Of a stretch of 64,000 bases of DNA, positions 23,640 to 39,503 are shown in pieces. The number at the start of each line of letters is the position of its first letter. Positions within the stretch are counted from its first letter, which is position 1. This DNA comes from Algoriphagus sp. (lineage in GTDB: Bacteria; Bacteroidota; Bacteroidia; Cytophagales; Cyclobacteriaceae), in NCBI GenBank assembly GCA_018336015.1, contig JAGXQZ010000049.1, forward strand, positions 62,001-126,000. Direction: 5' to 3'. Under the pieces are notes generated by a model. The model saw only the letters and a program-made list of their open reading frames with translations. It was not told where the DNA came from and ran no database searches. A program made the translations under genes and the position numbers.

Positions 23640-24136
23640 TTGGTTACGGTTAGCGTGGTTCCATTTACGCTTGCAGTAAATAACGCCAAGGGCGCATTCG
23701 CTGGACCTTGAAGAACTTTACCAGCTGAGTCAAACACCGAACCATGGCAAGTACAGGTAAAGCGACTGTTGGCAAAAGACCAACTGTCCGAGCATCCTGA
23801 GTGGGTACACACCGAAGTCATCGCAACATAGGAACCATTAATATTAGCGACCAGGGCGCGGGCATCTTGAATCAACAGCCAACCACCCGAACTGGCTAGT
23901 CGAGTTTGGATGGTTAAGTCTATTCGGATGGTATTTCCCGAAACTGTGATTCCTCCGGATTGACCGGGGTTTCCGGTATTATTCCCATTTCCGGGATCTG
24001 CATCATCGGTCGAGGAACAGGAAGTAAAAAAGGCAACTCCGAAGGTGCCCATGACAGCGGCAAGACCCGCCTTTTCAATAAATTTTCTTCGGGAATCAGT
24101 AAGCTTTCCTGAGGTAGTTGGGATTGACTTTTCCAT
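23636..24136 (-). CDS. Rieske [2Fe-2S] lipoprotein
   Basis: A Rieske ferredoxin-domain protein. From the ATG at 24136 it begins with a twin-arginine signal (DSRRKFIEKAGLAAVMGTFGVAFF) that ends in a lipobox TSC, so a folded cluster protein is probably exported and lipid-anchored. A Gly/Asn linker precedes the domain. Cluster ligands are in CTHSGC and CTCHGSVFD. It heads the operon with YceI and DUF5777. An 11-bp inverted repeat lies just upstream. The longer frame to 24178 is rejected because it would run into that repeat and bury the Tat signal. Confidence 0.92.
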   Translation of the reverse strand: MEKSIPTTSGKLTDSRRKFIEKAGLAAVMGTFGVAFFTSCSSTDDADPGNGNNTGNPGQSGGITVSGNTIRIDLTIQTRLASSGGWLLIQDARALVANINGSYVAMTSVCTHSGCSDSWSFANSRFTCTCHGSVFDSAGKVLQGPANAPLALFTASVNGTTLTVTK

Positions 24137-24140
24137 AAAA

Positions 24141-24184
24141 GATTGATTGTTAGGTTTTGTGATAGCACTTACGAACAATCAATC
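24141..24184. promoter_or_regulatory. 11-bp inverted repeat before the Rieske operon
   Basis: GATTGATTGTT and AACAATCAATC, 22 bp apart, directly upstream of the Rieske start codon at 24136. A second perfect 8-bp palindrome (GATCAAAA-N3-TTTTGATC) occupies 24191-24209. The first fits an operator or leader hairpin; the second may be the 3' end of the neighbouring gene. Confidence 0.4.
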
Positions 24185-24213
24185 AATTCGGATCAAAAAG
24201 GTTTTGATCGGTC

Positions 24214-24735
24214 TTAAAAATGTTTGGGCCTCAAGATCTCACTCACGATGATGGCTTCTTTTACCGTCTTTGGGTTTTTCAAAAGCTCAGCATATTTATT
24301 CACTTTTGGAGCTGCGATTTCCTGCGATTTGAAGCGCTTAAACTCAGGTTCGACGAAAGTCTTATTGGCTAAAGCTTGGTAGGGATTTTTTTTCACCGAA
24401 GATTCAAAAGCTCCCTCGTAAAATTTAGCCTCATCATCCACTTCTTCCACAGGTTCAAAGCGTCGTTTAGGCTGAGTTTTTGGTTCCTGAAAAGTAGTTG
24501 GAGCGGGTGCAGTAAAGACAGGTTGAGGCTTTGGAGCAGGAGGCGCTTCCGGGGCCGGAGGATTCTGGGCATTTCGGATCTCCTTAAGCAATTCTTCAAA
24601 AGTCAACCCCTTTGGTGGTGCTTCAGGCTGATTTTCATCGGAATCCATAGGTTCTGCCGACTTCTTCTTTTTGGAAGCATTGTAAATAAAATACGCCACA
24701 ATCGCGATGATGTAGATGATCTGTCCTAAGTCCAT
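24214..24735 (-). CDS. Membrane-anchored proline-rich protein
   Basis: A 173-residue protein with one N-terminal membrane helix (LGQIIYIIAIVAYFIYNA), a KKKK stop-transfer patch, an acidic segment, a helical LTFEELLKEIRNAQN motif, a proline/alanine-rich linker (about 60-90) and a charged helical C-terminus. This suggests a cytoplasmic tail scaffold. No family function recognised. Co-directional with the Rieske operon but separated by 77 bp of palindromes. Confidence 0.7.
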   Translation of the reverse strand: MDLGQIIYIIAIVAYFIYNASKKKKSAEPMDSDENQPEAPPKGLTFEELLKEIRNAQNPPAPEAPPAPKPQPVFTAPAPTTFQEPKTQPKRRFEPVEEVDDEAKFYEGAFESSVKKNPYQALANKTFVEPEFKRFKSQEIAAPKVNKYAELLKNPKTVKEAIIVSEILRPKHF

Positions 24736-24777
24736 GAAGGTAAGATAAGGGAAAAAAGATTTCGATGGGAATATAAA

Positions 24778-25180
24778 TACGATTTACGATTTACGAATGA
24801 CGACACCCAAGATTGCTCCCTACAGTTACGAGATAATCGGAAGTAAGGACGAGTTACGATTTACGAATGACGACATTCTAAGGAACTTCAATCATTAAAC
24901 TTCTAGGAAACATTCAAATGGTTCAAGTCTGCAGAAGTGCCTGCTGCTAAATTGGTTCAAGTCTTCAGACCTGCCTGCTGAAGGCAGGCTTGGACCCTTT
25001 TGGATGCAGTCTTCAGACCGCTTTACTGTTCATCATTCGGCCTTCTTTATTCGTTATTCGACATTTACTTAAACTTTCGAATGTTAAAATTTCGAATACT
25101 GAACATCGAATGATGAATAGCGAAGAAAAGTCAAGTCTACTCTAGATGTCGTAAATCGTAAATCGTCATTCGTAAATCCC
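24778..25180. repeat. Nested inverted 7-bp arrays with a 34-bp direct-repeat core
   Basis: The 524-bp gap before smc holds no gene. Outer left arrays (24778-24805 and 24848-24875) have units such as TACGATT, TACGAAT and GACGACA. The outer right array (25146-25180) has ATGTCGT, AAATCGT, AAATCGT, CATTCGT, the same motif on the other strand. Inner arrays TTATTCG (25033-25067) and CGAA/TGAA every 7 bp (25092-25126) are likewise inverted. The core has GGTTCAAGTCT repeats at 24921 and 24955 and a GCCTGC/GCAGGC hairpin near 24975. Confidence 0.7.
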
Positions 25181-25202
25181 ACAAGCATATCTCATCAAAT
25201 TA

Positions 25203-25232
25203 TTGTCAAATCCATCCTTTCCCCCTATTTTG
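25203..25232 (+). promoter_or_regulatory. Candidate Bacteroidota sigma-A promoter of smc
   Basis: TTG at 25203-25205 and TATTTTG at 25226-25232 are 20 bp apart, close to the -33 TTG / -7 TAnnTTTG arrangement of Bacteroidota. Transcription would begin about 20 bp before the ATG at 25260. Confidence 0.4.
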
Positions 25233-25259
25233 AAACCTTAATCGCGAGGAAAAAAGAGT

Positions 25260-28200
25260 ATGCTGCTTAGCAAACTGGAAATCAAAGGATTCAAAAGTTT
25301 TGGGGATAAAATGGTCATCCACTTCGACAAGGGTATCACCGGTGTCGTGGGTCCAAATGGCTGTGGCAAATCCAACGTGGTCGATGCCATCCGTTGGGTG
25401 CTCGGCGAGCAAAAATCCCGAATGCTGCGCTCCGACAAGATGGAAAATGTCATCTTCAACGGAACCAAAAACCGTAAGCCTACCAACATGGCCGAGGTTT
25501 CCCTGACTTTTGAAAACACCAAAAACCTCCTTCCTACCGAATACACCCACGTCACCATCACCCGACGCTACTACCGCACCGGGGAAAGTGAATACCAAAT
25601 CAACGGCGTCACCTGTCGCCTGAAGGACATCACCAACCTATTCATGGACACGGGGATCACGTCCAACTCCTACGCGATCATCGAACTCAAGATGATTGAA
25701 GAGTTACTCAATGACAAAAACAACTCCCGACGGGAACTCTTCGAAGAAGCTGCCGGTATCTCCAAGTTCAAAAACCGCAAGCGGGAAACGCTCCGAAAAC
25801 TCGAAGATACCGATGCCGATTTGGCAAGGGTTGAGGACTTGCTGTTTGAGATTGATAAGAATTTAAAATCGCTGGAAAAGCAAGCCAAGCAGGCTGCCAA
25901 GTACTTTGAGATCAAAGCCGATTACCGATTGGCGAGTATCAACTTGGCTAAGAAGTCCATCGAGCAATACGCTCAGGCTCTGATTGAAGCCAATTCAAAA
26001 ATCACACAGGAATCCGACCGTAAGCTTCAGGTTCAAACCCAAATCGCTGACCTGGAGGCCCAACTCAGCGAACTCAAAGCCGAGTTGATCCATAAGGAAA
26101 AGCTCCTTTCCTCCCGACAAAAAACACTCAACGAGCACGTCAATAAAATCCGAGCCTTCGAGTCGGAAAAGAAAATCAAAAACGAACGGCTACGATTTCT
26201 CGAGGACCGCTCCCAAGCTTTACGCGAGCAAATCGATAATGACCGAAAGTCAAATGACCGTGCAGGCTTTTCTATCCGCTCCTTGCAGCAGGAAAAAGAG
26301 TCTGCCGAAAAAATCCTCGCAGAAAAAGAATTTGTCGTGTCCTCGCTTCGTCAGGAATACGATTCCCAAAAGTTGGTGACTTCCGAAAAGCAACAGTCCC
26401 AAAAGGAAGTTGCCCTGCGTTTCGAAAGTCTCAAAGAACGGGTTTACCAACTCGGCAAAGAAGTCGAAATCAAGCAAATCCAACTCAGCACCCTCAAGCA
26501 GGAACTCGAGCGCACGTCCTCAGATGACAGTTCGCAGGAAGCCAATTTGGTGGAGTTTGAGGATAAAATGGCGGAACTGAAAGCACAGCTCGATGCCGCC
26601 CAATCCTCCTACGCCACCCTTAAATCCAAGCAGGAAGATCAGGATCAGAAGATCGAAGAGACCAACCGCGTGATCGAAATGATCCGAGAAGAGTTGACCA
26701 CATCTTCCCGCAAGTTGGACTCCAAGACCAACGAATTCAACCTGACCAAATCACTGGTCGAAAACCTCGAAGGCTTCCCGGAAGCCATCAAATTCCTCAA
26801 GAAAAACGACTCTTGGGGTAAGGACATTCCCCTCCTCTCCGACTTGCTCACCACCGATGAAAAGTATCGTGTGACGATAGAAAACTACCTCGAGTCCTAC
26901 ATGAACTATTACGTGGTGGACACCGAGGCGCAAGCGATAGCAGCGATCCAATTGCTCAGTGATGCCGCAAGAGGTAAGGCCAATTTCTTTGTATTGGAGC
27001 ATTTTGAGCGCTTCAAGCCCAGCCAAAGCAAGCTTTTCGCCAATGCCATTGCCGCCACGGAGATCATCGAGTTTGATGTCAAGTACGGTCGTCTGATCAA
27101 CTTTATCCTAGACAATGTCTACCTCGTGCAGGGAGATTACAAGGATTTCCCGACGGATCCGGAATGTGTGTTTCTCTCCGAAACGGGCAAATACACCAAA
27201 CGTAAGTTTTCCATCTCGGGGGGTTCCGTGGGGCTTTTCGAAGGAAAACGAATCGGCCGTGCCAAAAACCTGGAAAAGCTCGACAAGGAAATCAAAGAAC
27301 TGGGCAAAAAGGTCAGCACAACCCGCAGCAACCTGGACCAAAAACTCAGCGACCTGCTCAAGCTCAAGGAAGTCAGCTACAAAAAAGCACTGGAAGAAAG
27401 CCAAGTTGCCATCAACGAGCTCAATTCGGCCTATGTTTCCATCCGAACCAAAAAGGAGCAATTGGCTGAGCTACTCAGCTCCAATGCCAACAAGCGGGAA
27501 GATATCCTCGACCGCATCGCGACCTTGGAAGAAAGCCTGACCGCGATTCAGCCCCGATTGGCGGAAGAAAAGGAGCAGTTTGACGGTTTGGCGGAGCAGG
27601 TGGCGCTCCTAACAGAGGAAGTGGAAGCCGAAAACAAGCGCTTGGCCGAAAAGTCCCAAACCTTCAATCAGGAAAACATCACCTACATCCAGCAAGTCAA
27701 TCGGGTGAACAACCTGGAACAGGAGATTGAATTCAAGCAGAATGCTTTCGAAAGCTCCAAAGAGCGGATTGAAAAGTCCCAAGCCGAACTCGCCCAACTC
27801 GATGCTGAGATCAAAAGTCTACTGGACAACAATGAAGTCAAAGACGACGAACTGATCGAGCTTTATTCCGAAAAAGAAAGCATCGAACAGGGCGTGACCG
27901 AAGCCGAAAAGGACTACTACGGCGCCCGAGGCCTGATCGATGAAACCGACACGCGCATCCGCAGCCTGCAGAAATCCAAGGAAGGATTTGACCACCTGCT
28001 CAGCGAGCTTCAAAATGCCATCAACGAGATCAAGCTCAAGATGAGCGGGATGAAGGAGCGACTGAGTGTAGAGTTTGAGCTCGACCTCGATCAGCTGATG
28101 GAAGAAAATCCGAACCTCGATCCGGAATTTGCAGACTTTGCCGAGGAAGAACTTCGAGACCTGGTGCGCAAGCAAAAAGAGCGACTGGAAAAAATCGGTC

Positions 28201-28799
28201 CGATCAATCCGATGGCGATGGAAGCCTACGACGAGATCAAGATCCGTTTCGACTTTATCACCGGACAGAAGGCCGATTTGGTCAAGGCCAAGGAATCTCT
28301 ATTATCCACCATTTCCGAGATCGATCAGGTGGCCAAGGAGACATTTTTGGATGCCTTTGGCAAGATCAAAGAGAACTTTGTGAAGGTCTTCCGCTCCCTC
28401 TTTACCGAGCAGGACGACTGCGATCTGACCTTGGTCGATCCGGACAATCCTCTGGAATCGCCCATCGAGATCATGGCCAAGCCCAAGGGCAAGCGTCCCC
28501 TGACCATCAACCAGCTGAGCGGTGGGGAAAAGACCCTGACGGCCACTTCCCTACTCTTCTCCATCTACCTGCTGAAGCCGGCCCCCTTCTGTATCTTCGA
28601 CGAGGTGGATGCCCCGCTGGACGATGCGAACATCGACAAGTTCAACCAGATCATCCAGAAGTTTAGCTCCGAGAGCCAGTTTATCATCGTGACGCACAAC
28701 AAGCGCACCATGGCCAGCACGGATATTATGTATGGAGTAACCATGATTGAGGCGGGGGTATCGAGAGTGGTTCCGGTGGATTTGAGGGAGTTGGCTTGA
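25260..28799 (+). CDS. smc: Chromosome segregation ATPase SMC
   Basis: Full-length 1179-residue SMC, the condensin ATPase that organises and segregates the chromosome. The N-terminal head has Walker A GPNGCGKSN (31-39) and VLGEQKSRMLRSDKMENVIFNG. Two long coiled coils flank a hinge (about 500-650; EGFPEAIKFL to INFILDNVYLV). The C-terminal head has signature LSGGEKTLTATSL (from 1086) and Walker B CIFDEVDAPLDD with Asp1114-Glu1115. No scpA or scpB gene is nearby. The last 135 bp occur again twice downstream (29787-29921, 32092-32226), so the 3' end appears to be an insertion target. Confidence 0.97.
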   Translation: MLLSKLEIKGFKSFGDKMVIHFDKGITGVVGPNGCGKSNVVDAIRWVLGEQKSRMLRSDKMENVIFNGTKNRKPTNMAEVSLTFENTKNLLPTEYTHVTITRRYYRTGESEYQINGVTCRLKDITNLFMDTGITSNSYAIIELKMIEELLNDKNNSRRELFEEAAGISKFKNRKRETLRKLEDTDADLARVEDLLFEIDKNLKSLEKQAKQAAKYFEIKADYRLASINLAKKSIEQYAQALIEANSKITQESDRKLQVQTQIADLEAQLSELKAELIHKEKLLSSRQKTLNEHVNKIRAFESEKKIKNERLRFLEDRSQALREQIDNDRKSNDRAGFSIRSLQQEKESAEKILAEKEFVVSSLRQEYDSQKLVTSEKQQSQKEVALRFESLKERVYQLGKEVEIKQIQLSTLKQELERTSSDDSSQEANLVEFEDKMAELKAQLDAAQSSYATLKSKQEDQDQKIEETNRVIEMIREELTTSSRKLDSKTNEFNLTKSLVENLEGFPEAIKFLKKNDSWGKDIPLLSDLLTTDEKYRVTIENYLESYMNYYVVDTEAQAIAAIQLLSDAARGKANFFVLEHFERFKPSQSKLFANAIAATEIIEFDVKYGRLINFILDNVYLVQGDYKDFPTDPECVFLSETGKYTKRKFSISGGSVGLFEGKRIGRAKNLEKLDKEIKELGKKVSTTRSNLDQKLSDLLKLKEVSYKKALEESQVAINELNSAYVSIRTKKEQLAELLSSNANKREDILDRIATLEESLTAIQPRLAEEKEQFDGLAEQVALLTEEVEAENKRLAEKSQTFNQENITYIQQVNRVNNLEQEIEFKQNAFESSKERIEKSQAELAQLDAEIKSLLDNNEVKDDELIELYSEKESIEQGVTEAEKDYYGARGLIDETDTRIRSLQKSKEGFDHLLSELQNAINEIKLKMSGMKERLSVEFELDLDQLMEENPNLDPEFADFAEEELRDLVRKQKERLEKIGPINPMAMEAYDEIKIRFDFITGQKADLVKAKESLLSTISEIDQVAKETFLDAFGKIKENFVKVFRSLFTEQDDCDLTLVDPDNPLESPIEIMAKPKGKRPLTINQLSGGEKTLTATSLLFSIYLLKPAPFCIFDEVDAPLDDANIDKFNQIIQKFSSESQFIIVTHNKRTMASTDIMYGVTMIEAGVSRVVPVDLRELA

Positions 28800-28813
28800 T
28801 TTGATAAAATTTC

Positions 28814-28980
28814 GGCTAAAGCCCAAGCGATTGTTTGAATCCATGTTGCCTCCAGCTGAAGCAGGAGGCAATTCAACCAATCGTATTGTTCGATAGGATT
28901 TTTGAATTGGAATGGTGAATAGACATGGCCTTTAGGCCATTCCATTTGAATCATAATCGTATTTAATCGGGCTTTATCCC
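28814..28980. repeat. Left palindrome cluster (BIME-like) of the RAYT unit
   Basis: Four short palindromes in order: GGCTAAAGCC (28814), TTGCCTCC/GGAGGCAA arms (28846-28871), ATGGCCTTTAGGCCAT (28925) and GGGCTTTATCCC (28969). The same four, in the same order and orientation, recur at 29448-29636 on the other side of the transposase gene. This is the layout of REP/BIME elements mobilised by REP-associated transposases. Confidence 0.75.
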
Positions 28981-29007
28981 AAATTCTTCATCTTCAATTT
29001 TTCAAGT

Positions 29008-29445
29008 ATGCCATTCGTAAAAATTTACATCCACCTCGTCTGGAGTACCAAAAACAGGGTGCCGTACTTGAACTCAAAAGAACTCAGAGTAAAAGTCTGG
29101 AATCATATCCGTGAAAACGCACAGAAAAAAGAAATTTTCGTGGATTTCATCAATGGATACTCAGATCATTGCCATTGTTTGATTTCTCTAGGAGTGGATC
29201 AAACCATCGAAAAGACAGTCCAGCTTCTAAAAGGTGAGTCTTCTTTTTGGATCAATAAAAATGGTTTGACCTCTGAGAAATTCGAATGGCAGGATGAATA
29301 TTTTGCTGTTTCTGTATCAGAATCTCAGATAGATAGGGTTCGAGACTATATTAAAAAACAAGAAGAGCATCATCTGAAAAAGACTTTTAAGGAAGAATAT
29401 GAAGAATTTATATCCAAATATGGCTTTCAGAAATTGAAGGGTTGA
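29008..29445 (+). CDS. REP-associated tyrosine transposase (Y1, IS200-like)
   Basis: A 145-residue HUH transposase of the IS200/TnpA_REP type. HUH motif His54-Cys55-His56 in YSDHCHCLISLG and catalytic Tyr114 in RVRDYIKKQEEHHLKKTF. The N-terminal FVKIYIHLVWSTKNRVPYL is typical of the family. It acts on single-stranded palindromic ends. Palindrome clusters in direct orientation flank it on both sides, so the gene appears to sit inside its own REP unit. Intact length suggests it may still be active. Confidence 0.92.
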   Translation: MPFVKIYIHLVWSTKNRVPYLNSKELRVKVWNHIRENAQKKEIFVDFINGYSDHCHCLISLGVDQTIEKTVQLLKGESSFWINKNGLTSEKFEWQDEYFAVSVSESQIDRVRDYIKKQEEHHLKKTFKEEYEEFISKYGFQKLKG

Positions 29446-29447
29446 TT

Positions 29448-29636
29448 GGGCTAAAGCCCAGCATGATTTTTCATCCATTTCAATGCCTCCAGCTGAAGCA
29501 GGAGGCAAATCAATTCAAGAGACAAATCAAATTTTCTGCACTATCAATAATTATGATGTTTCGACCATTATTGAATAGGAATGTGCCTTTAGGCCATTCC
29601 AAAATTTGGATTCCCATTCCCTCTGGGCTTTAGCCC
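29448..29636. repeat. Right palindrome cluster (BIME-like) of the RAYT unit
   Basis: GGGCTAAAGCCC (29448), TGCCTCC/GGAGGCA arms (29484-29507), GTGCCTTTAGGCCA (29583) and GGGCTTTAGCCC (29625). It matches the left cluster in order and is followed immediately by the tail of a KilA-N gene. Confidence 0.75.
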
Positions 29637-29649
29637 AATTAAATCCCAT

Positions 29650-29737
29650 AAGCCTATTTCGCATCAACCAACTCGCGATCACTCAAATGACTTCTTTGGT
29701 TCGTCACCGAAATGATTTGACTGAATTAAGAAGTTGA
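29650..29737 (+). pseudogene. 3' remnant of a KilA-N gene (copy 1)
   Basis: About 29 codons ending in TGA at 29735 read NQLAITQMTSLVRHRNDLTE plus LRS and stop. They match the C-terminus of the intact KilA-N protein at 30101-30913 (NQLAITQMTSLIRHRRNLED). The rest of this copy is missing and its left side abuts the RAYT palindrome cluster, so the REP unit probably replaced or interrupted it. A 49-bp spacer links it to smc tail copy B, as in copy 2. Confidence 0.75.
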
Positions 29738-29786
29738 AAATTGGAAATGAGCCTTATTTAAGTAATGCAATAAGCGCAATTTAACC

Positions 29787-29921
29787 AGCTCCGAGAGCCA
29801 GTTTATCATCGTGACACACAACAAGCGCACCATGGCCAGCACGGATATTATGTATGGAGTAACCATGATTGAGGCAGGCGTGTCAAGAGTAGTTCCGGTG
29901 GATTTGAGGGAGTTGGCGTAA
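29787..29921 (+). pseudogene. Extra smc 3' end (tail copy B)
   Basis: 135 bp matching smc 28665-28799. It encodes the identical peptide from ESQFIIVTHNKRTMASTDIM to DLRELA, then TAA. By eye it has eight differences from the resident tail (for example ACG/ACA, GCG/GCA, GGG/GGC, GTA/GTG, TCG/TCA, GCT/GCG, TGA/TAA), and all are synonymous. The fragment has no start and cannot make a useful protein. The synonymous pattern says it diverged while part of a working smc gene. Confidence 0.85.
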
Positions 29922-29965
29922 CGTCTTTGCGAGGAGGAGGTACGATGACGAAGCAAACTCATTCC
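29921..29965. repeat. Candidate short interspersed repeat after smc tail B
   Basis: The stretch CGTCTTTGCGAGGAGG followed by ACGATGACGAAGCAA resembles a REP-like intergenic repeat that I recall from related genomes. Only one copy is present in this window, so its repeat status is from memory, not shown here. The remaining spacer to 30100 holds no gene. Confidence 0.3.
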
Positions 29966-30100
29966 TGTAGTAGGTTCAGAGTTCGTTGTTCTTGGTTTAG
30001 CCTTTAGCATTCCACGAGTTGGCATCTTTGTTTCTTTTAGGCTTGAGGCTCAATCCTTATATTTAGCTATTAATCAACTTTTTATACCAAATACACTTTT

Positions 30101-30913
30101 ATGGCAAAAGGAAAGAAAATATCGGTTCAGGGTACAGAGATTACCCTTCTAATTGAAAAATCTGGTGAATTTATTTCACTAACTGACATGCTAAAGGCTA
30201 AGGATGGGGAATTCTTCATCTCCGATTGGTTAAGGAACAGAAATACTTTAGAGTTTTTGGGAATTTGGGAGTCAGTAAACAACCCAGATTTTAATTATGG
30301 CGAATTCGCCACAATTAAAAGTCAAGCTGGATTAAACAGCTTTAAAATCAGTGTTAAAGAGTGGGTTGAAAAAACAAAAGCTATTGGATTAAAAGCAACT
30401 GCAGGGCGATATGGAGGCACTTATGCACATATAGATATTGCCTTTGAATTTGGCATGTGGATTAGTCCTGGTTTTAAAATTTACCTGATTAAAGAATATA
30501 AACGACTCAAAGAAGACGAAAACAACCGACTAAAGCTGGAATGGAACTTCCAACGAACCCTAGCCAAAGTCAACTACTATATCCATACCGATGCGATCAA
30601 AGAAAATCTCATCCCTACTGCAATCTCCAAAACTCAAGCCGCTATCATCTATGCCAATGAAGCCGATGTACTGAACATGGCCTTGTTTGGAAAAACAGCC
30701 AAGCAGTGGAGAGATCAGAATCCCGAAAAATCCGGAAACATCAGAGACTATGCTACTATTGAGCAACTCGTGGTTCTATCCAACATGGAAAGTACCAATG
30801 CCCTGCTGATTCATCAAGGTCTCTCCCAACCCGATCGGTTAATCCACCTCAACCAACTCGCGATCACTCAAATGACTTCTTTGATTAGGCACAGAAGGAA
30901 TTTGGAAGATTAA
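30101..30913 (+). CDS. KilA-N domain protein
   Basis: A 270-residue protein with a KilA-N DNA-binding domain over about residues 8-120 (ITLLIEKSGEFISLTDML, DGEFFISDWLRNRNTLEFLGIWE, WVEKTKAIGLKATAGRYGGTYAHIDIAFEFGMWISP). A helical C-terminal half ends SQPDRLIHLNQLAITQMTSL. KilA-N proteins are common in phages and mobile elements; a DNA-binding regulatory role is likely. The C-terminal codons recur as gene tails at 29650-29737 and 31947-32042, each followed by an smc tail, so this gene appears to be cassette cargo. ORF6N follows after 63 bp. Confidence 0.88.
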   Translation: MAKGKKISVQGTEITLLIEKSGEFISLTDMLKAKDGEFFISDWLRNRNTLEFLGIWESVNNPDFNYGEFATIKSQAGLNSFKISVKEWVEKTKAIGLKATAGRYGGTYAHIDIAFEFGMWISPGFKIYLIKEYKRLKEDENNRLKLEWNFQRTLAKVNYYIHTDAIKENLIPTAISKTQAAIIYANEADVLNMALFGKTAKQWRDQNPEKSGNIRDYATIEQLVVLSNMESTNALLIHQGLSQPDRLIHLNQLAITQMTSLIRHRRNLED

Positions 30914-30976
30914 ATTTTTAATCAAAAAGCTTTATTTTGAGCTTCTAATCGCACTTTTATACCTCATTTTTCCCTT

Positions 30977-31855
30977 ATGACACCAAGCTCAATGATCTCC
31001 CAAGAGGAAATAGAAAATCGAATTTTTACCATAAGAGGCCAACAAGTAATGATTGACAGGGATTTGGGTGAAGTTTATTGTGTAGACACCAAAGTTCTGA
31101 ACCAAGCTGTAAAAAGAAATTTGGAAAGATTTCCGGATTCTTTCAGATTCCAACTTTCTGAGGAAGAAAAAAATGAACTGGTCACAAATTGTGACCAGTT
31201 TAATAAACTCAAACACTCCACTTCCAATCCCTTTGCTTTCACCGAGCAAGGTGTAGCCATGTTATCAGCGGTCTTGAGGAGCGAAACTGCGATTCGTGTA
31301 AGTATCCAAATCATAAAGACATTTGTTGCCCTTCGAAAAATTACTGCCGAAAATCAACTTCTGTTCAAAAGATTGGAAAAGGTTGAACTCAAACAACTGG
31401 AAACCGACCAAAAATTTGACAGAATATTTAAGGCCTTGGAAAGCAAGGAGCATATCCCTAATCAAGGTGTATTTTTTGAAGGAGAGGTATTTGACGCGTA
31501 CGAGTTGACATCCCGCATCATTCGATCTGCTAAGTCTAGCATTATCTTGATTGACAATTACATCAATGAAACTACCTTAACTCACCTATCAAAGAAGAAT
31601 CAAGGAGTCAAAACCATTTTGTTTACCAAAACCATCTCCAAACAAATCGACTTGGATATTCTAAAGGCCAATGAACAATATGGAGGATTTGAAGCCAAAG
31701 TATTTGAAAAAAGCCATGATCGGTTTTTGATCATTGATCAGGAAGAAATCTACCATCTCGGTGCTTCTTTAAAGGATTTGGGTAAAAAATGGTTCGCTTT
31801 CTCAAGATTGGAAAAAAAGTCAGTGAAAAGTTTAATAGACTCACTTCCTTTCTAA
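30977..31855 (+). CDS. ORF6N domain protein with PLD-like C-terminus
   Basis: A 292-residue protein. Residues about 12-120 form an ORF6N (KilA-N-related) DNA-binding domain (IFTIRGQQVMIDRDLGEVYCVDTKVLNQAVKRNLERFPDSF, NPFAFTEQGVAMLSAVLRS). A Lys/Glu-rich coiled linker follows (about 120-160). The C-terminus (165-290) has IILIDNYINETTLTHL and HDRFLIID (His247-Asp254) then YHLGASLKDLGKKWFAF, resembling a single phospholipase-D-type HxK/D...GS motif with Arg in place of Lys. Nuclease activity is unproven. It shares strand with the KilA-N gene. Its coding sequence contains a 10-bp-arm palindrome at 31176-31200. Confidence 0.87.
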   Translation: MTPSSMISQEEIENRIFTIRGQQVMIDRDLGEVYCVDTKVLNQAVKRNLERFPDSFRFQLSEEEKNELVTNCDQFNKLKHSTSNPFAFTEQGVAMLSAVLRSETAIRVSIQIIKTFVALRKITAENQLLFKRLEKVELKQLETDQKFDRIFKALESKEHIPNQGVFFEGEVFDAYELTSRIIRSAKSSIILIDNYINETTLTHLSKKNQGVKTILFTKTISKQIDLDILKANEQYGGFEAKVFEKSHDRFLIIDQEEIYHLGASLKDLGKKWFAFSRLEKKSVKSLIDSLPF

Positions 31856-31946
31856 ACTGGGATAGGTCAACAGCTTTTTCTTCCACCTGCAGATAAGCTT
31901 AATTGCCAGATAGTAAAGGAATTTACCACAACCTGTGCAATTAAAT

Positions 31947-32042
31947 CAACCCGAACGCTTACTCCACCTCAACCAACTCGCGATCACTCAAATGACTTCT
32001 TTGGTTCGTCACCGAAATAATTTGGCTGAATTAAGAAGTTGA
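31947..32042 (+). pseudogene. 3' remnant of a KilA-N gene (copy 2)
   Basis: Thirty-one codons and TGA encode QPERLLHLNQLAITQMTSLV then RHRNNLAELRS, matching the end of the KilA-N protein at 30101 and nearly identical to remnant 1. No upstream part is present; the 91 bp between the ORF6N stop and this remnant hold no coding signal. A 49-bp spacer similar to that after remnant 1 joins it to smc tail copy C, so remnant plus spacer plus tail is one repeated module of roughly 270 bp. Confidence 0.75.
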
Positions 32043-32091
32043 AAATCGAAAATCAGCCTTATTTTAGCAAAGCCACAAGCACAATCGAAGC

Positions 32092-32226
32092 GGCTCCGAA
32101 AGCCAGTTTATCATCGTGACACACAACAAGCGCACCATGGCCAGCACGGATATTATGTATGGAGTAACCATGATTGAGGCAGGTGTATTGAGGGTAGTTC
32201 CGGTGGATTTGAGGGAGTTGGCCTAA
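32092..32226 (+). pseudogene. Extra smc 3' end (tail copy C)
   Basis: A second 135-bp duplicate of the smc terminus. It shares ACA, GCA, GTA and TAA with copy B against the resident gene but has its own changes (GAG/GAA, GGT, AGG, GCC). One codon differs in meaning (TCG Ser to TTG Leu). It thus represents a third smc allele. It marks the right edge of the KilA-N/ORF6N module. Confidence 0.85.
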
Positions 32227-32402
32227 GTATCGACTATCGCCTTTTCCTTATTAATTGTTGATTGGCAAGGAGACAAAAAATATTGAACGTGTGGTTGCAT
32301 GGGCAATAATTAAACTTATGGGAATCAATTTACTCCGGAATTTATATCTTTTTAGAAAGATGGATTTAAGGAATGACTTGATTTGGATATTTACCTTCTC
32401 TC

Positions 32403-32588
32403 TTACCTCGGGGCTGCAATGCAAGGTTCGGCCGAATTTTGGGAAACTAGCCTCTCATTACAAACCGAACAGGAATAATATTTTAGGTTTCCGTACCAAT
32501 CTGTACTCAACTCATGAATAAATTTAAGTTTACTGTAGCAATAAGGACAATGAACTTCGGAGGCTTTTATTTTTTTCTTTTCTTTCAT
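32403..32588 (-). CDS. Small zinc-ribbon protein (61 aa)
   Basis: A 61-residue basic peptide with two CxxC knuckles, CPYC near residue 19 and CSVC near residue 40, separated by KLKFIHELSTDWYGNLKYYS. This is the pattern of a small zinc ribbon. It starts 10 bp after the stop of the methyltransferase-HIT gene, so it is likely the last gene of that minus-strand operon. The final residues (SAEPCIAAPR) look unstructured and could reflect a truncated or recombined 3' end. A plus-strand frame overlaps but looks spurious. Confidence 0.5.
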   Translation of the reverse strand: MKEKKKIKASEVHCPYCYSKLKFIHELSTDWYGNLKYYSCSVCNERLVSQNSAEPCIAAPR

Positions 32589-32598
32589 AAAAGGTAAT

Positions 32599-33474
32599 TT
32601 AATACACTTTCTTCTCCGGAATCACACCTCTCACTCCTCCTCTTGGATTTTCCATATCTCCCGCGTACCTCGGAATCAGATGGATATGAACATGGAAAAC
32701 TGTCTGTCCAGCTTTTTCTCCGACATTTATTCCAATGTTGAAGCCATCAGGATTGAAACGCTTTTGGATTTCCTTTTTCACCTTATTAAGCATAAACAGG
32801 CAGGAAGCCTGTTCTTTGAAATTCAATTCAAAGTAATCCGAAACATGCCTTTTGGGAATGATTAAGGCGTGTCCTGGATTTACAGGGAATTTATCCAAAA
32901 TGGAATAAGCTTGAGCTGATTCAAAAATCAATTCCGCTTTGGATTCTGGATTACAAAACGGACAATCTGAGAGTAATTTTTCAACCTGATTGTAATGTCT
33001 GTATTCGTAAATTTCGCAAGTATCATTCTTAAAAATGGACCGAAAAGGCAAAATGACATTAGTTTGAAATGTCGGTTTTTGGTGAATTTTATGCATTCGG
33101 AACCCTTCATAGACCAAATCCCTTCTGATCGCGAAATATGCTTTTCCCGAAGGCTTTAGTAAAGAGGAAATCTCCATTAAAACCAAAGCTTGTTCATCTG
33201 GCAGGAGAACATTCAGCACATAAAAGCAAATGATGGTATCAAAATTTTGCTCAGGAAATTTGGGAAAATAATGCTTATCATAGCCTTTGATGTCTACTCC
33301 ATGATTGGCTAAGATCTCAACGTCTTTTCCAAGTCCGCATCCAAAATCCAAAACTTCACCCAACAAAAGACCTCTTTCCTTCACAATTCTTGCAGGAAAA
33401 GAAAGAGAATCCCGATCCTTGGCTGTCAGGTGAGAAAATTGGTTTTCATTCTTGCCCATAATATTCAAAACCAT
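32599..33474 (-). CDS. SAM methyltransferase fused to HIT hydrolase domain
   Basis: A two-domain protein of 291 residues. Residues about 15-165 form a class I methyltransferase with SAM motif VLDFGCGLGKDVE (41-53), an acidic residue after strand 2 (IKGYDKHY) and DTIICFYVLNVLL. Residues about 170-291 form a HIT domain: a CPFC zinc-type knuckle (171-174), NPGHALIIPKRHV, and the histidine triad HVHIH (261-265). HIT enzymes act on nucleotidyl linkages. The combination suggests processing of a methylated nucleotide or nucleic acid end, which is inference. It overlaps the upstream HNH gene by 29 bp. Confidence 0.85.
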   Translation of the reverse strand: MVLNIMGKNENQFSHLTAKDRDSLSFPARIVKERGLLLGEVLDFGCGLGKDVEILANHGVDIKGYDKHYFPKFPEQNFDTIICFYVLNVLLPDEQALVLMEISSLLKPSGKAYFAIRRDLVYEGFRMHKIHQKPTFQTNVILPFRSIFKNDTCEIYEYRHYNQVEKLLSDCPFCNPESKAELIFESAQAYSILDKFPVNPGHALIIPKRHVSDYFELNFKEQASCLFMLNKVKKEIQKRFNPDGFNIGINVGEKAGQTVFHVHIHLIPRYAGDMENPRGGVRGVIPEKKVY

Positions 33475-34501
33475 TATTGTGAGCGATGGTAATCAATGGT
33501 TGAAGTGTTTCCTTAAACCTCAACTTTCCCAAGGTTTCGTCAAGAAGACCATCAATAGTTGGAAAAATAGTAAGGTATTCCTCAATGACCCATGATTTTG
33601 GTGCTTTCTTAAAAACGATCTCAAAGCTTCTCTTTTGAATATCAAAAAAAGGTTCGAATAATTGTTCAAGCCTTGGGAGCTTATCACTTTTTGATGAATT
33701 GGTAGAAGAATGAGCAGGAACTAAATTCCAGTTTAAATTATGAGACACAAAGTTATAGGGCACAAAATGATCTAAAACATAATTTTCTTTAGTAAGCGGT
33801 ATATTGGAATAGATACACCTATGCTCATTTACCTCATCAAAATAGAGATTCCAAAACTCCAATTTGTTTTTGTTGAGATTACTCCTATTGATAGGCTTTA
33901 TAAGCTTATTTGGAATATCAGGAACATTAGGATTATGCTTTTGTAAAAAGAGACTCAAATTCCAGTAGCAAAAGCTTTTTAGAATGGCTGAGTTTTTTAA
34001 TAGATATTGAAACCATTCTGGATTAATCTCTATGTGATGTTGATCCAAAAAGTATAGACTTTTTCTTTTTGGATCACGTGAGTAAAAATAGATTTGATTT
34101 TTATTCAAGTTAGGAAACCAAGGCGAAAGGAACCAATGAGGCACTTGATTATCGAAATGGGACAGTGCAGATATCGATTTTAAATCATTTAAGGAAAGAA
34201 TTTGATTCCAAACCTGATTCTGATTTAAGTCTACTGGAATTCCTCTTTCGCGATGGAAAAAAGAAATTGTCTCCTGAATCTTGTCCTGTTTACCAAAAGA
34301 GACTTTGAAGTAATTAACAGTATACCATGCATTCGACAACATCCGAGAAAAAATTCTTCTTTTCTCAATTCTCAATCCTTCTTCTTCCAACAATTGAAGA
34401 AATGAGAGAAACCAATAATACTTATAGGTAGCTGAAGTCTTTTTAAATGTTGCAGATAAAAATTGAATAGGGAGTAAATTATCCTCAGGTAAATTGACCA
34501 T
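33446..34501 (-). CDS. HNH endonuclease domain protein
   Basis: A 351-residue protein whose C-terminal half holds an HNH nuclease motif: HRCIYSNIPL (Cys229), VLDHFVPYNFV (Asp244-His245), NWNLVPAHSS and TNSSKSDKLP (Asn268, Lys271). The N-terminal 200 residues are helical and aromatic-rich with no recognised family, and may bind the substrate. Base composition is AT-rich compared with smc. It heads a minus-strand set with the methyltransferase-HIT fusion (29-bp overlap) and a zinc ribbon, beside the smc-tail island. A defence or mobile-element role is plausible but unproven. Confidence 0.82.
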   Translation of the reverse strand: MVNLPEDNLLPIQFLSATFKKTSATYKYYWFLSFLQLLEEEGLRIEKRRIFSRMLSNAWYTVNYFKVSFGKQDKIQETISFFHRERGIPVDLNQNQVWNQILSLNDLKSISALSHFDNQVPHWFLSPWFPNLNKNQIYFYSRDPKRKSLYFLDQHHIEINPEWFQYLLKNSAILKSFCYWNLSLFLQKHNPNVPDIPNKLIKPINRSNLNKNKLEFWNLYFDEVNEHRCIYSNIPLTKENYVLDHFVPYNFVSHNLNWNLVPAHSSTNSSKSDKLPRLEQLFEPFFDIQKRSFEIVFKKAPKSWVIEEYLTIFPTIDGLLDETLGKLRFKETLQPLITIAHNNGFEYYGQE

Positions 34502-34669
34502 ATTTTTTTAAAAACTTTAGTTCAATTTAGCAAAAACCCACAAAAAACCATTTCAGAGTAGAATAATTGCCTAAGTGGAGATTGCAACTCCCCTTTCATA
34601 TTCCAAAAAATTTGAATTTCCTCCATTACCCACTTGCCAAGTCCCTCTACCCCTTCCCAAGTCCCCCAG

Positions 34670-34921
34670 TTCACCTTTTTTCCGAACCTTTTCGCTTCGG
34701 AATCAAACCGGTTTGAAGGATTGGCGAAAAGGTTTGTCGGTTTTGTAAACAAGTTTGCGAATCTGGGAAACAGGTTTGCTGTTTTGCTCGCTCATTTCGC
34801 CGAATCCGTAAAAAAGATCGGCAAATCCTCGAAGTGGTTTACCGAATCGGGAAGAAGTTTCGACACTTTGTCGAAAAAGTTTGTTTCCGAGGCAAATTAC
34901 TTGCTTTTTCAAGCGAATGAA
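34670..34921. repeat. Degenerate 21-bp tandem array, 12 units
   Basis: Twelve 21-bp units in strict phase (starts at 34670, 34691, 34712 and so on). Most begin TTT or TTC and many end AAG or AGG. Read on the plus strand, the array gives heptads such as FEGLAKR, FVGFVNK, FANLGNR, FAVLLAH, FAESVKK, and it is also partly open on the minus strand. The frame continues through the terminator at 34989-35018 and starts only at a TTG, so a protein is doubtful. The rest of the 34502-35045 gap holds only this array and the terminator. Confidence 0.7.
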
Positions 34922-34988
34922 GTCACCCATTTTATGATCTACTGGACCTTTCTTCTTACCCACCCTAACACTTTAGCACTGTACTTCA

Positions 34989-35018
34989 CAAAAAAGCCGG
35001 AGAGGTTCGTCTCCGGCT
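34989..35018 (-). terminator. Terminator of the 158-aa hypothetical gene
   Basis: Perfect 8-bp stem GCCGGAGA/TCTCCGGC with a 6-nt loop, followed on the minus strand by six T residues. Confidence 0.88.
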
Positions 35019-35045
35019 AGTGTCAAGTCATGCATCAGGTCCTCT

Positions 35046-35522
35046 TTAGTCCTGAGGAGGGAGATTTTGCCGTTTGCCCTGACCTTCAAACCGCTTGCGC
35101 AGGTCGTCATAAATGGCCTTGGCATCGGGAACATTCATTTTGGCCGCCTGCTTCACCGAATTGTAATAACTCAGGGCACTGACATACGCTTCAGACCCGG
35201 CCAGCATGGTGGTGTCACTCAGCGTATCCTCAATCTGTGTGCATTGCCTTAGCAGAGGCAAGAGCTTGCTCACCGCTTCCCAGTCCTTGTCAAATTCTTC
35301 TTTTGGGACAAAAGGGGGCATAAACTGAGGATTACTACCGGCATACTCTGCCACCTTTCCGACGAAAGGTTCCGTGCCATCACTCATCTTCGGAATGGTC
35401 TTCCGCTGTTCGGGCGTGAGGGCAATCACATAAGGTGCAAGAATCTGTTGCACTTGGTCTAGGGCTGTTTTGACAGCCTGTAGATCCGCATCAGGGATCT
35501 GAATGGAAATTTTGTTTTCCAT
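35046..35522 (-). CDS. Conserved hypothetical protein (158 aa)
   Basis: No named family recognised. A soluble, mainly helical protein, with an N-terminal KISIQIPDADLQAVKTALDQVQQILAPYVIALTPEQRKTIPKMSDGT segment and a C-terminal KQAAKMNVPDAKAIYDDLRKRF segment. It lacks signal and membrane helices. Similar proteins of this size with a LTPEQRKTIPKM-type motif are, as I recall, common in Bacteroidota. Single gene with its own terminator. Confidence 0.7.
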   Translation of the reverse strand: MENKISIQIPDADLQAVKTALDQVQQILAPYVIALTPEQRKTIPKMSDGTEPFVGKVAEYAGSNPQFMPPFVPKEEFDKDWEAVSKLLPLLRQCTQIEDTLSDTTMLAGSEAYVSALSYYNSVKQAAKMNVPDAKAIYDDLRKRFEGQGKRQNLPPQD

Positions 35523-35708
35523 GGTAAAAATGAGGTTTAGTGAAAAATTAAATTAAAACGGTAAGCTTAAGTTAAGTTCTTTAGTTGGAAAAACAAAAGA
35601 AAAGATTGGGCAGGATTCTAAAACCTACCAGGTCTTTCCTTAAAGGGATTTGAACTGAGTTCACCAGGCATTCAGCCTTGACTTTCTGTTTACTTCAGCC
35701 TAAAGGCT

Positions 35709-37364
35709 TTACTTCGCAAATAAGGGTGGATGCTTTTCTTCAAAATCCGTCGCCTGCTGATAGGCTCGGGCAAGGGCTAAAATACTTCCCTCGTCATACA
35801 GGTTGCCCAAAAGCGTTAAACTGGTGGGCCTGCCCTTTTTGTCGAAGCCATTGGGCACACTGACCGCAGGATGCCCGGTCAGGTTGGTGATCAAGAGCTG
35901 CCTGCCCCGGTTGGAGGGAGCGATGATGACCTCATAGTCTTTGAAAAGCGCATGCATGGCCTCGATCAGCAGGCTGCGCTGCCGGTTGGCCTGAAGGTAC
36001 TCGACCGCAGGGATAAATCGGGACTGCCTCAGGGAATTGGCTCGAGAGGCTTCGTCCTGCTCGGTCAGCAAGTCTACGGCTCCACTCCGTACCAAGTCGT
36101 CAAAGAAAGCGCCCGCTTCGGCTCGGAGAATAATATCAAAGACAGCATAGGGAAAGTTGGCTGGCAATTCAATCGGAGTAGGCTCCACGCCCATCGTTTT
36201 CAATACTTCCAAGGTGGCTTTCAGATTGGCACCCCACTCCGTCGTGTCGGATTCAATGTCTTTTTTCAGGTAGGCCACTTTCAGTTGCGCAGGTGATTTT
36301 GTCACCCTATTGAATGGGGCCTCATTGGTACTTGGGTCCTGGGGATCTTTGCCATAGAGTAGGCTGAAGATCAGTTCGCAATCCTCGGCAGAGCGGGCAA
36401 GTGGGCCGATTTTGTCCATGGACCAGCTGAGGCTCATGGCGCCCTGACGGCTGATTCGGCCATAAGTTGGGCGAAGGCCGGTGACTCCTGATCTAGAGGC
36501 GGGTGCTGTGATGGAGCCGAGGGTCTCTGTCCCGATGGCAAAGGCCACCAACCCTGCGGAGGTGGCTGCACCGGAACCGGCAGAGGAACCGCTCGCACCC
36601 TGGGTGAGGTCCCATGGATTTTTGGTTTTGCCCCCAAACCAGACATCACCACGTGCGAGTTCACCCGAAACGAGTTTTCCTAGCAATACGGCTCCCACCT
36701 CTTCCAAGCGCCTGACCACATAGGCCGTCGCATCAATTACTTGGTTGGAATACGGCGCAGCGCCCCAGGTGGTTGGATATCCGGGAACAGCCAAGAGGTC
36801 CTTCACGCCATAGGGAATCCCATGCAAAATGCCCCGATACTTACCCGCGGCGAGCTCCTGATCTGCCCGCTTTGCCTGTTTGAGGGCCAGATCTTCCGTC
36901 AGCGTGATCACACTTTGGAGTTGGCCGTCGTAGCGCTTGATCCGATCCAGGTAGAGTCGAGTTAAAGCTTCGGAAGTGATTTTACGTTTTTTGATCAGCG
37001 AAGCCAACTGCGGAATCGTGTAAAAAGCGACCTCCTGAAGATCAGCAGGCAGACTTACCTCATCCGGGATCAGGAAAGGGGGATTGTCTTTTTTCTCAGG
37101 AAATTGAAACCCCATGGGGCGTGGATCAAACTGGACTGCAGGTAGGGTCTCGTAGGGAACAGGATAGGCACGAAGGCTATCATACCCTGATTTGTTTTCC
37201 TTGAGGTAGTTGTATGCCACGTCAATTCGCTCATTTTCAAACTCCAGACCGATTAATTTTTGGCTGTGTCGGATGTCTTTTTTGGTAAAGCCAGCTTCGT
37301 TGGTTTTGCAGGAAAATAAGCCCAAAGCAAAAGCGAGCAGCGCGAAGAAAACGGATGGTTTCAC
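35709..37364 (-). CDS. Amidase-signature lipoprotein
   Basis: Amidase signature family hydrolase (GatA-related), 551 residues. The start is a GTG; no in-frame ATG lies directly upstream. A lipoprotein signal with LFSC (Cys19) suggests an envelope location, so a role in tRNA amidation is unlikely. Catalytic residues are Lys188 in GIPYGVKDL, cis-Ser260 in GASGSSAGSG and nucleophile Ser284 in GTETLGSITAPAS. It probably hydrolyses amides or peptides outside the cytoplasm. Stand-alone gene. Confidence 0.9.
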   Translation of the reverse strand: MKPSVFFALLAFALGLFSCKTNEAGFTKKDIRHSQKLIGLEFENERIDVAYNYLKENKSGYDSLRAYPVPYETLPAVQFDPRPMGFQFPEKKDNPPFLIPDEVSLPADLQEVAFYTIPQLASLIKKRKITSEALTRLYLDRIKRYDGQLQSVITLTEDLALKQAKRADQELAAGKYRGILHGIPYGVKDLLAVPGYPTTWGAAPYSNQVIDATAYVVRRLEEVGAVLLGKLVSGELARGDVWFGGKTKNPWDLTQGASGSSAGSGAATSAGLVAFAIGTETLGSITAPASRSGVTGLRPTYGRISRQGAMSLSWSMDKIGPLARSAEDCELIFSLLYGKDPQDPSTNEAPFNRVTKSPAQLKVAYLKKDIESDTTEWGANLKATLEVLKTMGVEPTPIELPANFPYAVFDIILRAEAGAFFDDLVRSGAVDLLTEQDEASRANSLRQSRFIPAVEYLQANRQRSLLIEAMHALFKDYEVIIAPSNRGRQLLITNLTGHPAVSVPNGFDKKGRPTSLTLLGNLYDEGSILALARAYQQATDFEEKHPPLFAK

Positions 37365-37532
37365 AGGTGGTGGAGTTGATCAAGGAAAGAAAGATTCACC
37401 AAAATGGGTTCGATGAGTAAGATAAGGGAAAATCAAAAAATGCAGCAAGGTAATCGTGCTGACCGGAAAAATGGAAGGTCAAGGGAGGGGTAAATCTGGA
37501 GGAATAGGAACCTGAAAAATCTGATTACCTAA

Positions 37533-38090
37533 TCAATAAAACTTGAGGTAATCGATCCATAGCTGAAAGCTTCCCTCCTGCTTGTCTGCTAGTATAAATC
37601 CTATCCGTTGGATGTCTTTGAGTTGGTTGGGATCGATCCCCTGGCTGATGGTAACTCCCATTCTGCTGATTTCAAGATCTTTCAAGGGAATGGTGAGCGT
37701 GACCCAATTTTGGGTTTTGGAACCGAACTTTGCCCGAAACTTGGGAAGGTAAAAGGGGGTGTCTTTTTCGATCAAAATCTCAAACTTCCGATCGGTGTCT
37801 GATTTGTACCGGATCTCGCAAAAGCGATACCCCGAAAGGTCGTAATCGCCCAGGGCACCACGGAGCGAGACAAATCCTCCGTTGTTACGGAGCGAAACCA
37901 CCCCGGTAAAGAGCAGCGCATCTTGGTCCAGTTTGGCTTGGGACTGAGACATCCCACCCATCACTCCGTCATTGATGATGGACCAGCGACCGAAGTTTTT
38001 TCCTTCTCCGAAATCAAAAATCAAGGGTTCCTTCATCGTATCTGAGTTGAGTTGAGCGTATAAATACAGGCCAAGAATTACAGTCCACAT
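37533..38090 (-). CDS. CIA30 family protein
   Basis: CIA30 (complex I intermediate-associated protein 30) domain, a jelly-roll beta-sandwich. Landmarks are IFDFGEGKNFGRWSIINDGVMGGMSQSQ, FTGVVSLRNNGGFVSLRG, CEIRYKSDTDRKFEILI and the C-terminal IGFILADKQEGSFQLWIDYLKFY. The longest frame begins with TTG at 38126; the ATG at 38090 gives a short hydrophobic leader (MWTVILGLYLYAQ) and 185 residues. Bacterial CIA30 proteins have no established role. Confidence 0.82.
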   Translation of the reverse strand: MWTVILGLYLYAQLNSDTMKEPLIFDFGEGKNFGRWSIINDGVMGGMSQSQAKLDQDALLFTGVVSLRNNGGFVSLRGALGDYDLSGYRFCEIRYKSDTDRKFEILIEKDTPFYLPKFRAKFGSKTQNWVTLTIPLKDLEISRMGVTISQGIDPNQLKDIQRIGFILADKQEGSFQLWIDYLKFY

Positions 38091-38296
38091 GTAACCTAAA
38101 GGGCTTTGGGTGTGGGATTGTTTCAAAGTCAGGGAAAAATAGGGAAGTACTCTTTTTTACTAGTTGGCTTTCTGCCGATGACCCACCCTGCCTTGCCACC
38201 GCAAAAGTGTTAAGGAGCCTGAGAAGTTTTCCTTCTTAGATGTCCTCAATTTCTCAGGAGAAATAAGGCATCCCAAGCCAATCTCACACAACACCT

Positions 38297-39202: not shown

Positions 39203-39435
39203 TTGGTTTTGGAGAAATAGAAATCCGTGATTGGTTAGGAAAGGGACGTTTCTTAAAGATTACTATCCTTGCGGTGGATTCAGTAATCGGTATCCTAATT
39301 TGCCAAAACTTTTCACAAACCTTAGAAAACCTATTTTGTATTTTATGATTATCCGCTTTTCTACGAGTACCCAACTAAGAAAAGGTTTGAAGTACGATTA
39401 GAGATGCTTTAGACTGTCGTCTGTGGTCAATCAAC

Positions 39436-39492
39436 GAATATCCGCAATCTTTAGAACCGATGACCTGCTTAGCGGTAAGCTTGCGGATATTC
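39436..39492. repeat. 12-bp perfect inverted repeat in a 300-bp gap
   Basis: GAATATCCGCAA (39436-39447) and TTGCGGATATTC (39481-39492) enclose 33 nt that contain a second small hairpin (GCTTA/TAAGC). No gene is seen in 39203-39503. It is too GC-balanced and lacks a T-run for a classic terminator; a small repeat element or structured RNA is possible. Confidence 0.45.
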
Positions 39493-39503
39493 ATAGTGTA
39501 GGC

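What the first reader, a model, noticed from the sequence alone, without database searches (positions are those of the whole stretch)
28665..32226. smc 3' end as a repeated insertion point: three 135-bp smc tails with synonymous divergence
Seen directly: the last 135 bp of smc recur at 29787-29921 and 32092-32226. Copies B and C each follow a KilA-N gene tail and a 49-bp spacer, so the module is KilA-N tail, spacer, smc tail. By eye, B differs from the resident tail only at synonymous positions (eight changes, including the stop codon), and C has one amino-acid change. Neutral decay of a dead duplicate would not spare the protein. So each tail probably evolved as the end of a working smc before being pushed downstream, as when an element integrates in a gene 3' end and restores it with its own copy. 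I know of no described system that uses smc in this way.
Basis: partly seen in the sequence, partly recalled or inferred. Interest (0 to 1): 0.87.

Follow-up and report, generated by a model that had tools for sequence, protein, structure and literature searches.

The report
Defence genes stacked behind smc
In Algoriphagus bacteria, phage-defence and other genes repeatedly land at the very end of the essential gene smc, each landing giving smc a fresh but equivalent ending and pushing the old one downstream as a fossil marker, apparently without any dedicated integration enzyme.

Summary
In detail: copies B and C of the last 135 bp of smc lie at 29787-29921 and 32092-32226. B differs from A at 8 sites with no amino-acid change; C at 10 sites with 2 changes, not 1. 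It is not unique to this window. Displaced, mostly decayed smc tails occur in 12 of the 66 genomes of the genus with an smc match (72 searched, this genome included) and in 9 of 80 public smc loci (five of these are the same genomes). They bound inserts with KilA-N, NmrA, peptidase M28 or Y1-transposase genes, amid known or candidate defence genes. An uninserted reference exists: in L016 a candidate defence gene starts 51 bp after smc; in L012, L083 and L023 its relative follows a fossil smc tail. In 12 genomes no tyrosine or serine recombinase match lies on the smc contig nearer than 128 kb, as far as contigs reach. A, B and C form one clade (98/95), so donors were close kin. I read this as serial C-terminal displacement by homologous recombination in the smc 3' end, as proposed for rhs genes, but at an essential gene whose tail is swapped for an equivalent one. 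The recombination step is inferred.

The parts
25260..28799 (+). smc, 1179 aa, with working tail A at 28665-28799
   Evidence: 80 public relatives kept
29008..29445 (+). Y1 (IS200-like) transposase; similar 30-bp repeats at 28847-28876 and 29484-29513
   Evidence: Pfam Y1_Tnp 3.5e-27; repeats
29642..29737 (+). relic of a KilA-N gene 3' end, then a 49-bp spacer
29787..29921 (+). displaced smc tail B (8 differences from A, 0 amino-acid changes)
30101..30913 (+). KilA-N gene, 270 aa, matches PADLOC PDC-S22
   Evidence: Pfam; PADLOC 1.8e-130
30977..31855 (+). ORF6N gene, 292 aa, matches PADLOC PDC-S05
   Evidence: Pfam; PADLOC 1.4e-117
31947..32042 (+). second KilA-N 3' end relic (first 88 nt 85% identical to the intact gene's end), then a 49-bp spacer
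32092..32226 (+). displaced smc tail C (10 differences from A, 2 amino-acid changes)
33446..34501 (-). HNH_4 endonuclease-like gene beyond the stack
   Evidence: Pfam 1.2e-6; no PADLOC match

Best explanation
The 3' end of smc in Algoriphagus is a recombination-fed landing site for defence and other genes. DNA from a close relative carrying the smc 3' end plus new cargo recombines with the resident smc. The working gene then ends in the incoming tail, and the resident last ~110-180 bp, with everything behind them, are pushed downstream. Repetition stacks layers of cargo, each bounded by a fossil smc tail that then decays. Because cargo plus a tail is itself flanked by smc homology, it can recombine again at any smc end, as a circle by single crossover or as linear DNA with one homologous and one illegitimate joint. 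Shown: the structure, empty versus occupied sites, purifying selection on the displaced tails that could be tested, recurrence across species, cargo type, and no nearby tyrosine or serine recombinase. Inferred: homologous recombination as the agent, the incoming form, and the order of events.
For: Selection on displaced copies: A-B 8 nt/0 aa, A-C 10/2, G004 13/3, L080 (last 111 bp) 15/2, and an acyl-CoA dehydrogenase gene (Pfam) in L190 27/8; P 0.0003 or lower in these five. Empty site L016 against L012, L083, L023. An NmrA-spacer-tail unit is followed by different neighbours: a PDC-M26A-type gene (L012, L083), a small ORF and an HNH gene (L014), a C5 methylase (L028). Gene turnover in 35 loci: downstream 147 ORFs in 98 clusters, mean Jaccard 0.022; upstream 166 in 52, 0.216. 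Defence cargo. No recombinase match on the smc contig nearer than 128 kb in 12 genomes. Lineage limit: A, B, C one clade 98/95; the G004 relic sits with its own smc and L009 (96/87). KilA-N is beside smc in 11 of the 18 genus genomes that have it (of 72). It swaps independently of smc: the window's copy is 80% identical to one in another genus beside an acyl-CoA dehydrogenase-like gene (G260) but 75% to the one behind smc in G004. Possible exchange among tails: the 12 variable sites avoid a 59-bp block (P 0.011 and 0.017).
Against: Most tails start in a narrow zone (-135 to about -120 from the stop, three flank types, judged by eye from gapped alignments; also about -113 in L080 and -180 in L118, and an L035 fragment from about -160), tighter than random illegitimate joints would give. 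In L038 the proximal fossil is more decayed than the distal one, against strict newest-first order. The two KilA-N relics in the window show no selection signal (P 0.10, 0.19). The collections hold one genome per species, so no strain comparison, and no circle was seen. A 135-bp tree cannot name donors. Outside smc I found few gene-tail cases: the window's KilA-N, a gene in L015, and one clear case among 44 non-smc KilA-N loci.
Confidence: 0.6

Rival explanations
1. Site-specific integration: a recombinase acting in trans, or since lost, uses an attachment site near -130 in smc, and its element carries the smc tail to restore the gene, as phage 21 and e14 do in icd (recalled).
For: Tail starts cluster at -135 to about -120 for three flank types; tail length resembles the recalled icd case; one module occurs in several backgrounds.
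Against: No tyrosine or serine recombinase match nearer than 128 kb (G020) on the smc contig in 12 genomes, though several contigs reach less far; inserts of one gene occur without one (L033, G004); the window tails are alleles of one lineage; other starts exist (L080, L118).
Confidence: 0.2
2. Insertion with long target duplication inside one genome: an element inserts and copies about 135 bp of smc.
For: Same geometry; described for restriction-modification genes (title seen in a reference list; content recalled). An IS-like insert in G078 has a 174-bp identical copy of smc -81 to +93.
Against: A dead duplicate would not diverge almost only at synonymous sites.
Confidence: 0.08
3. One ancestral smc-KilA-N-tail module, inherited and amplified by unequal crossing over, with gene conversion keeping the tails alike.
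For: B and C share 277 bp at 89% and are sisters (99/87); the G003 array has KilA-N genes separated by smc tails.
Against: Different cargo types carry tails; conversion does not explain 8 silent and 0 coding differences; an empty site exists.
Confidence: 0.12

Closest known systems
rhs C-terminal displacement (Jackson 2009, PMC2935791; passages seen)
   Same: Old 3' ends are shunted downstream in arrays; single crossover with a circular intermediate in conserved sequence is proposed; [quoted passage not shown]
   Different: There the displaced tips are variable, non-homologous ends of the protein; here the new tail is equivalent and the novelty is the genes behind an essential gene.
Sequential displacement of T6SS effector genes in Vibrio cholerae (Kirchberger 2017, PMC5361080; abstract and passages seen)
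   Same: Serial insertion at one end, old material kept behind, no evidence of an integrase, homology-facilitated illegitimate recombination proposed.
   Different: Effector-immunity genes, not an essential housekeeping gene; the effector itself changes.
Insertion with long target duplication (Nobusato 2000; title seen in a reference list, content recalled)
   Same: Restriction-modification genes flanked by long direct copies of target (recalled).
   Different: Here the two copies look like alleles that were both under selection.
Phage 21/e14 in icd (recalled)
   Same: A gene 3' end is replaced by an equivalent incoming tail.
   Different: Integrase-driven; no integrase found here.
Defence hotspots between core genes (e.g. 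PMC10250203; start of abstract in search listings)
   Same: Varied defence genes at a fixed core-gene site.
   Different: Here fossil tails mark layers.

Membership tests
C-terminal displacement (rhs type) | Displaced 3' fragments of the upstream gene downstream of it | tested here: met
C-terminal displacement (rhs type) | Displaced fragments belong to the same clade as the working gene | tested here: met
   window tails 98/95; G004 relic with its own smc and L009 96/87; other relics not placed
C-terminal displacement (rhs type) | The new C-terminus is non-homologous to the old one | tested here: not met
   tails encode nearly the same residues; so it works like it but is not a member
Integrase element restoring a gene 3' end | Recombinase on the element or beside the site | tested here: not met
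   12 genomes, no tyrosine or serine match on the smc contig nearer than 128 kb; several contigs reach less far (G024 24 kb, G051 60 kb, G028 ends 0.4 kb after smc)
Integrase element restoring a gene 3' end | Fixed crossover position | tested here: inconclusive
   mostly -135 to about -120, also about -113 and -180
Insertion with long target duplication | The two copies arise from one target | tested here: not met
   silent divergence in the five working-displaced pairs tested; G078 may be such a case
Defence hotspot | Varied defence genes at a fixed core-gene site in many species | tested here: met
   no PADLOC count was made upstream as a control, only gene turnover

The most novel reading that the evidence does not exclude
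Small units made only of defence or other genes plus a host-gene 3' end act as recombinase-free mobile cassettes: the host tail is their homology arm and repair patch, so an essential gene serves as an integron-like loading dock that keeps a stratified record of past defence systems, and the same units (KilA-N, PDC-S22) use other genes such as an acyl-CoA dehydrogenase the same way.
Probability: 0.3. Interest if true: 0.85.

Novelty: new variant of a known kind. Interest (0 to 1): 0.62.

Why it matters
It offers a readable record of successive gene arrivals at one site and a way for defence islands to grow without integrases, which bears on how defence islands form. Fossil tails of core genes could be scanned for genome-wide to find such docks and order their layers.

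Tried and rejected
Chance or low-complexity repeats: rejected. Paralogous genes: screened. tRNA or known RNA at the site: none in the window, none at gathering score in 24000-40000. Carriers of the tail: 12 phage records, all under 60% identity, two annotated as smc and the rest unannotated; 49 plasmid records, 47 under 60%, best listed row 61.9% (20 of 49 listed); viral contigs none. A general rule that KilA-N inserts with flanking duplication: of 58 KilA-N loci, 14 belong to smc or to the G003 array; of the other 44 (some are pieces of one gene, L162 could not be tested) 9 of 43 have flanking direct repeats, against 8 of 343 control genes (346 less 3 rows that were smc tails). The controls did not exclude KilA-N genes, and 4 of the 8 are Y1 transposases. 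Several of the 9 are dispersed repeat arrays, and a gene-tail search across KilA-N (58 loci, 180 flanking ORFs, 1.5 kb each side) gave one clear non-smc case. Which tail is native: unresolved; in a few close pairs the tail is more diverged than the body (L016-L018 P 0.002), in others not (window-L004, L012-L014, L019-L021). The G004 comparison was misaligned and is discarded.

Rows dropped before counts: G061 (its second match is 23 bp); three smc-tail rows.

Full report
What is there. The window lies in a 4.46-Mb genome held as G000; its nearest public smc relatives are Algoriphagus. smc occupies 25260-28799. Its last 135 bp recur at 29787-29921 (B) and 32092-32226 (C). Between A and B lie a Y1 transposase and a KilA-N 3' relic; between B and C lie an intact KilA-N gene, an ORF6N gene and another KilA-N 3' relic. 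Each relic ends 49 bp before the smc tail. The KilA-N and ORF6N proteins match the PADLOC families PDC-S22 and PDC-S05; I recall that PDC stands for phage defence candidate.

Selection. B carries 8 differences from A with no amino-acid change; random mutation would give 5.8. C carries 10 with 2. The same excess of silent change is seen for the displaced tail in G004 (13 nt, 3 aa), in L080 (15, 2, last 111 bp), and for a displaced tail of an acyl-CoA dehydrogenase gene lying beyond a KilA-N gene in L190 (27, 8). Only relics alignable without gaps were tested. The two KilA-N relics in the window gave no signal (P 0.10 and 0.19). The tails tested spent most of their divergence as ends of working genes.

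How widespread. Of 72 genomes of the genus, 66 gave an smc match, and 12 of these, the window's own included, have a further tail match (G061, with 23 bp, not counted). In 295 genomes of the family, searched with the 60-aa end at E 1e-5, 5 of 17 in the genus and 1 of 278 outside it had more than one match. That one, G078, differs: an IS-like insert with an identical 174-bp copy running past the stop codon. In G003 and G011 a tail lies well inside another contig than smc, near a Vsr gene and KilA-N units (G003) or a type I methylase (G011); in G058 it is on a 5-kb contig. In G028 it is on another contig, near an AbiH gene, but the smc contig ends 0.4 kb after smc and the orientations allow one continuous stretch, so it is not counted as away from smc.

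Empty and occupied sites. In L016 smc is followed after 51 bp by a gene whose relatives in L012, L019, L023 and L083 match part of the PADLOC profile PDC-M26A; next to it, in L083, is a DUF2357/PDDEXK_7 gene. McrBC-like is my own reading. In L012, L083 and L023 the relative of that gene is preceded by a fossil smc tail, with other genes between it and the working smc; in L012 and L083 the intergenic sequence also matches L016. A unit of NmrA gene, spacer and tail is found before three different neighbours. This shows insertion into smc with the old end displaced.

The cargo. Downstream of smc, 35 loci share almost nothing (mean Jaccard 0.022; 98 clusters from 147 ORFs), whereas upstream they share more (0.216; 52 from 166). 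Among 88 downstream proteins Pfam and PADLOC found type I, HpaII-, EcoRII- and MvaI-type restriction genes, C5 methylases, a KAP NTPase and HNH nucleases (only the first 25 families of each were displayed). Single proteins matched type I subunits, PDC-S20 and PDC-S41; 3 of the 10 sent there matched nothing. Some inserts are not defence genes (NmrA, peptidase M28; a rhamnosidase-type gene), and L080's insert of about 0.3 kb holds no long gene.

Mechanism. In 12 genomes with displaced tails, tyrosine-recombinase matches on the smc contig are 128 kb (G020), 167 kb (G011) and 195 kb (G028) away or more, and no serine recombinase is on an smc contig. Several contigs reach less than 100 kb from smc, and other enzyme families were not searched this way. 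The three window tails form a clade (98/95) with B and C sisters (99/87); the G004 relic falls with its own smc and that of L009 (96/87). Window and L004 smc differ by 9%, A and B by 6%. The incoming tails thus look like alleles of close kin, as expected if homology is needed. The 12 sites that vary among A, B and C avoid a 59-bp block (P 0.011 and 0.017), weak evidence of exchange among tails. Tail starts are tighter than random joints would give: -135 for KilA-N type 1 (window, G004; G024 has a like spacer), about -130 to -120 for KilA-N type 2 (with L023) and the NmrA unit, about -113 in L080, about -180 in L118; L035 is a fragment from about -160 that lacks the end. I read this as inheritance of the homology arm by cassettes rather than an attachment site, but a trans-acting recombinase is not excluded.

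Against a clean story. In L038 the nearer fossil is more decayed than the farther. Outside smc, the gene-tail cases are few: the KilA-N 3' end in the window and an unassigned gene in L015, and the acyl-CoA dehydrogenase gene.

Known or not. rhs C-terminal displacement and the Vibrio T6SS arrays work alike, including proposals of circular intermediates or one-sided homology. What differs is an essential gene whose end is swapped for an equivalent one, and cargo lying behind it. None of the titles listed in searches (15 of 107; 7 of 7; 10 of 14) describes this at smc, and one search found no paper; most subscription papers are not held.

Noticed in passing
window 30101-31855; L192 5825-7361; L193 2969-4459: KilA-N (PDC-S22) followed directly by ORF6N (PDC-S05) recurs behind smc in three genomes; possibly a two-gene system (PADLOC names tested for the window pair only).
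   Followed up: partly
L187 1-6152; L188 258-5188: KilA-N lies in arrays of single genes separated by repeats of about 400 bp (83-92% identical) or about 250 bp (72-93%), cassette-like.
   Followed up: no
L209 1-270; L210 1-212: In G078, an IS-like insert with ends CTGTCTTCCG and CGGAAAACAG is flanked by an identical 174-bp copy of smc -81 to +93, unusually long for an IS; assembly breaks inside it.
   Followed up: partly
L169 2482-3778: A 66-bp-period repeat array, CRISPR-like, lies beside a KilA-N gene.
   Followed up: no
L123 5695-8814: Decayed KilA-N genes with smc tails between them, on a contig away from smc in G003.
   Followed up: partly
L118 5752-8134; L120 287-1091: In two genomes an smc tail relic lies beside alike uncharacterised genes, next to a type I methylase in L118.
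   Followed up: partly
L015 13061-13835: A 33-residue copy, 88% alike, of the end of an unassigned 189-aa gene lies about 0.1 kb behind it, in the region behind smc.
   Followed up: no
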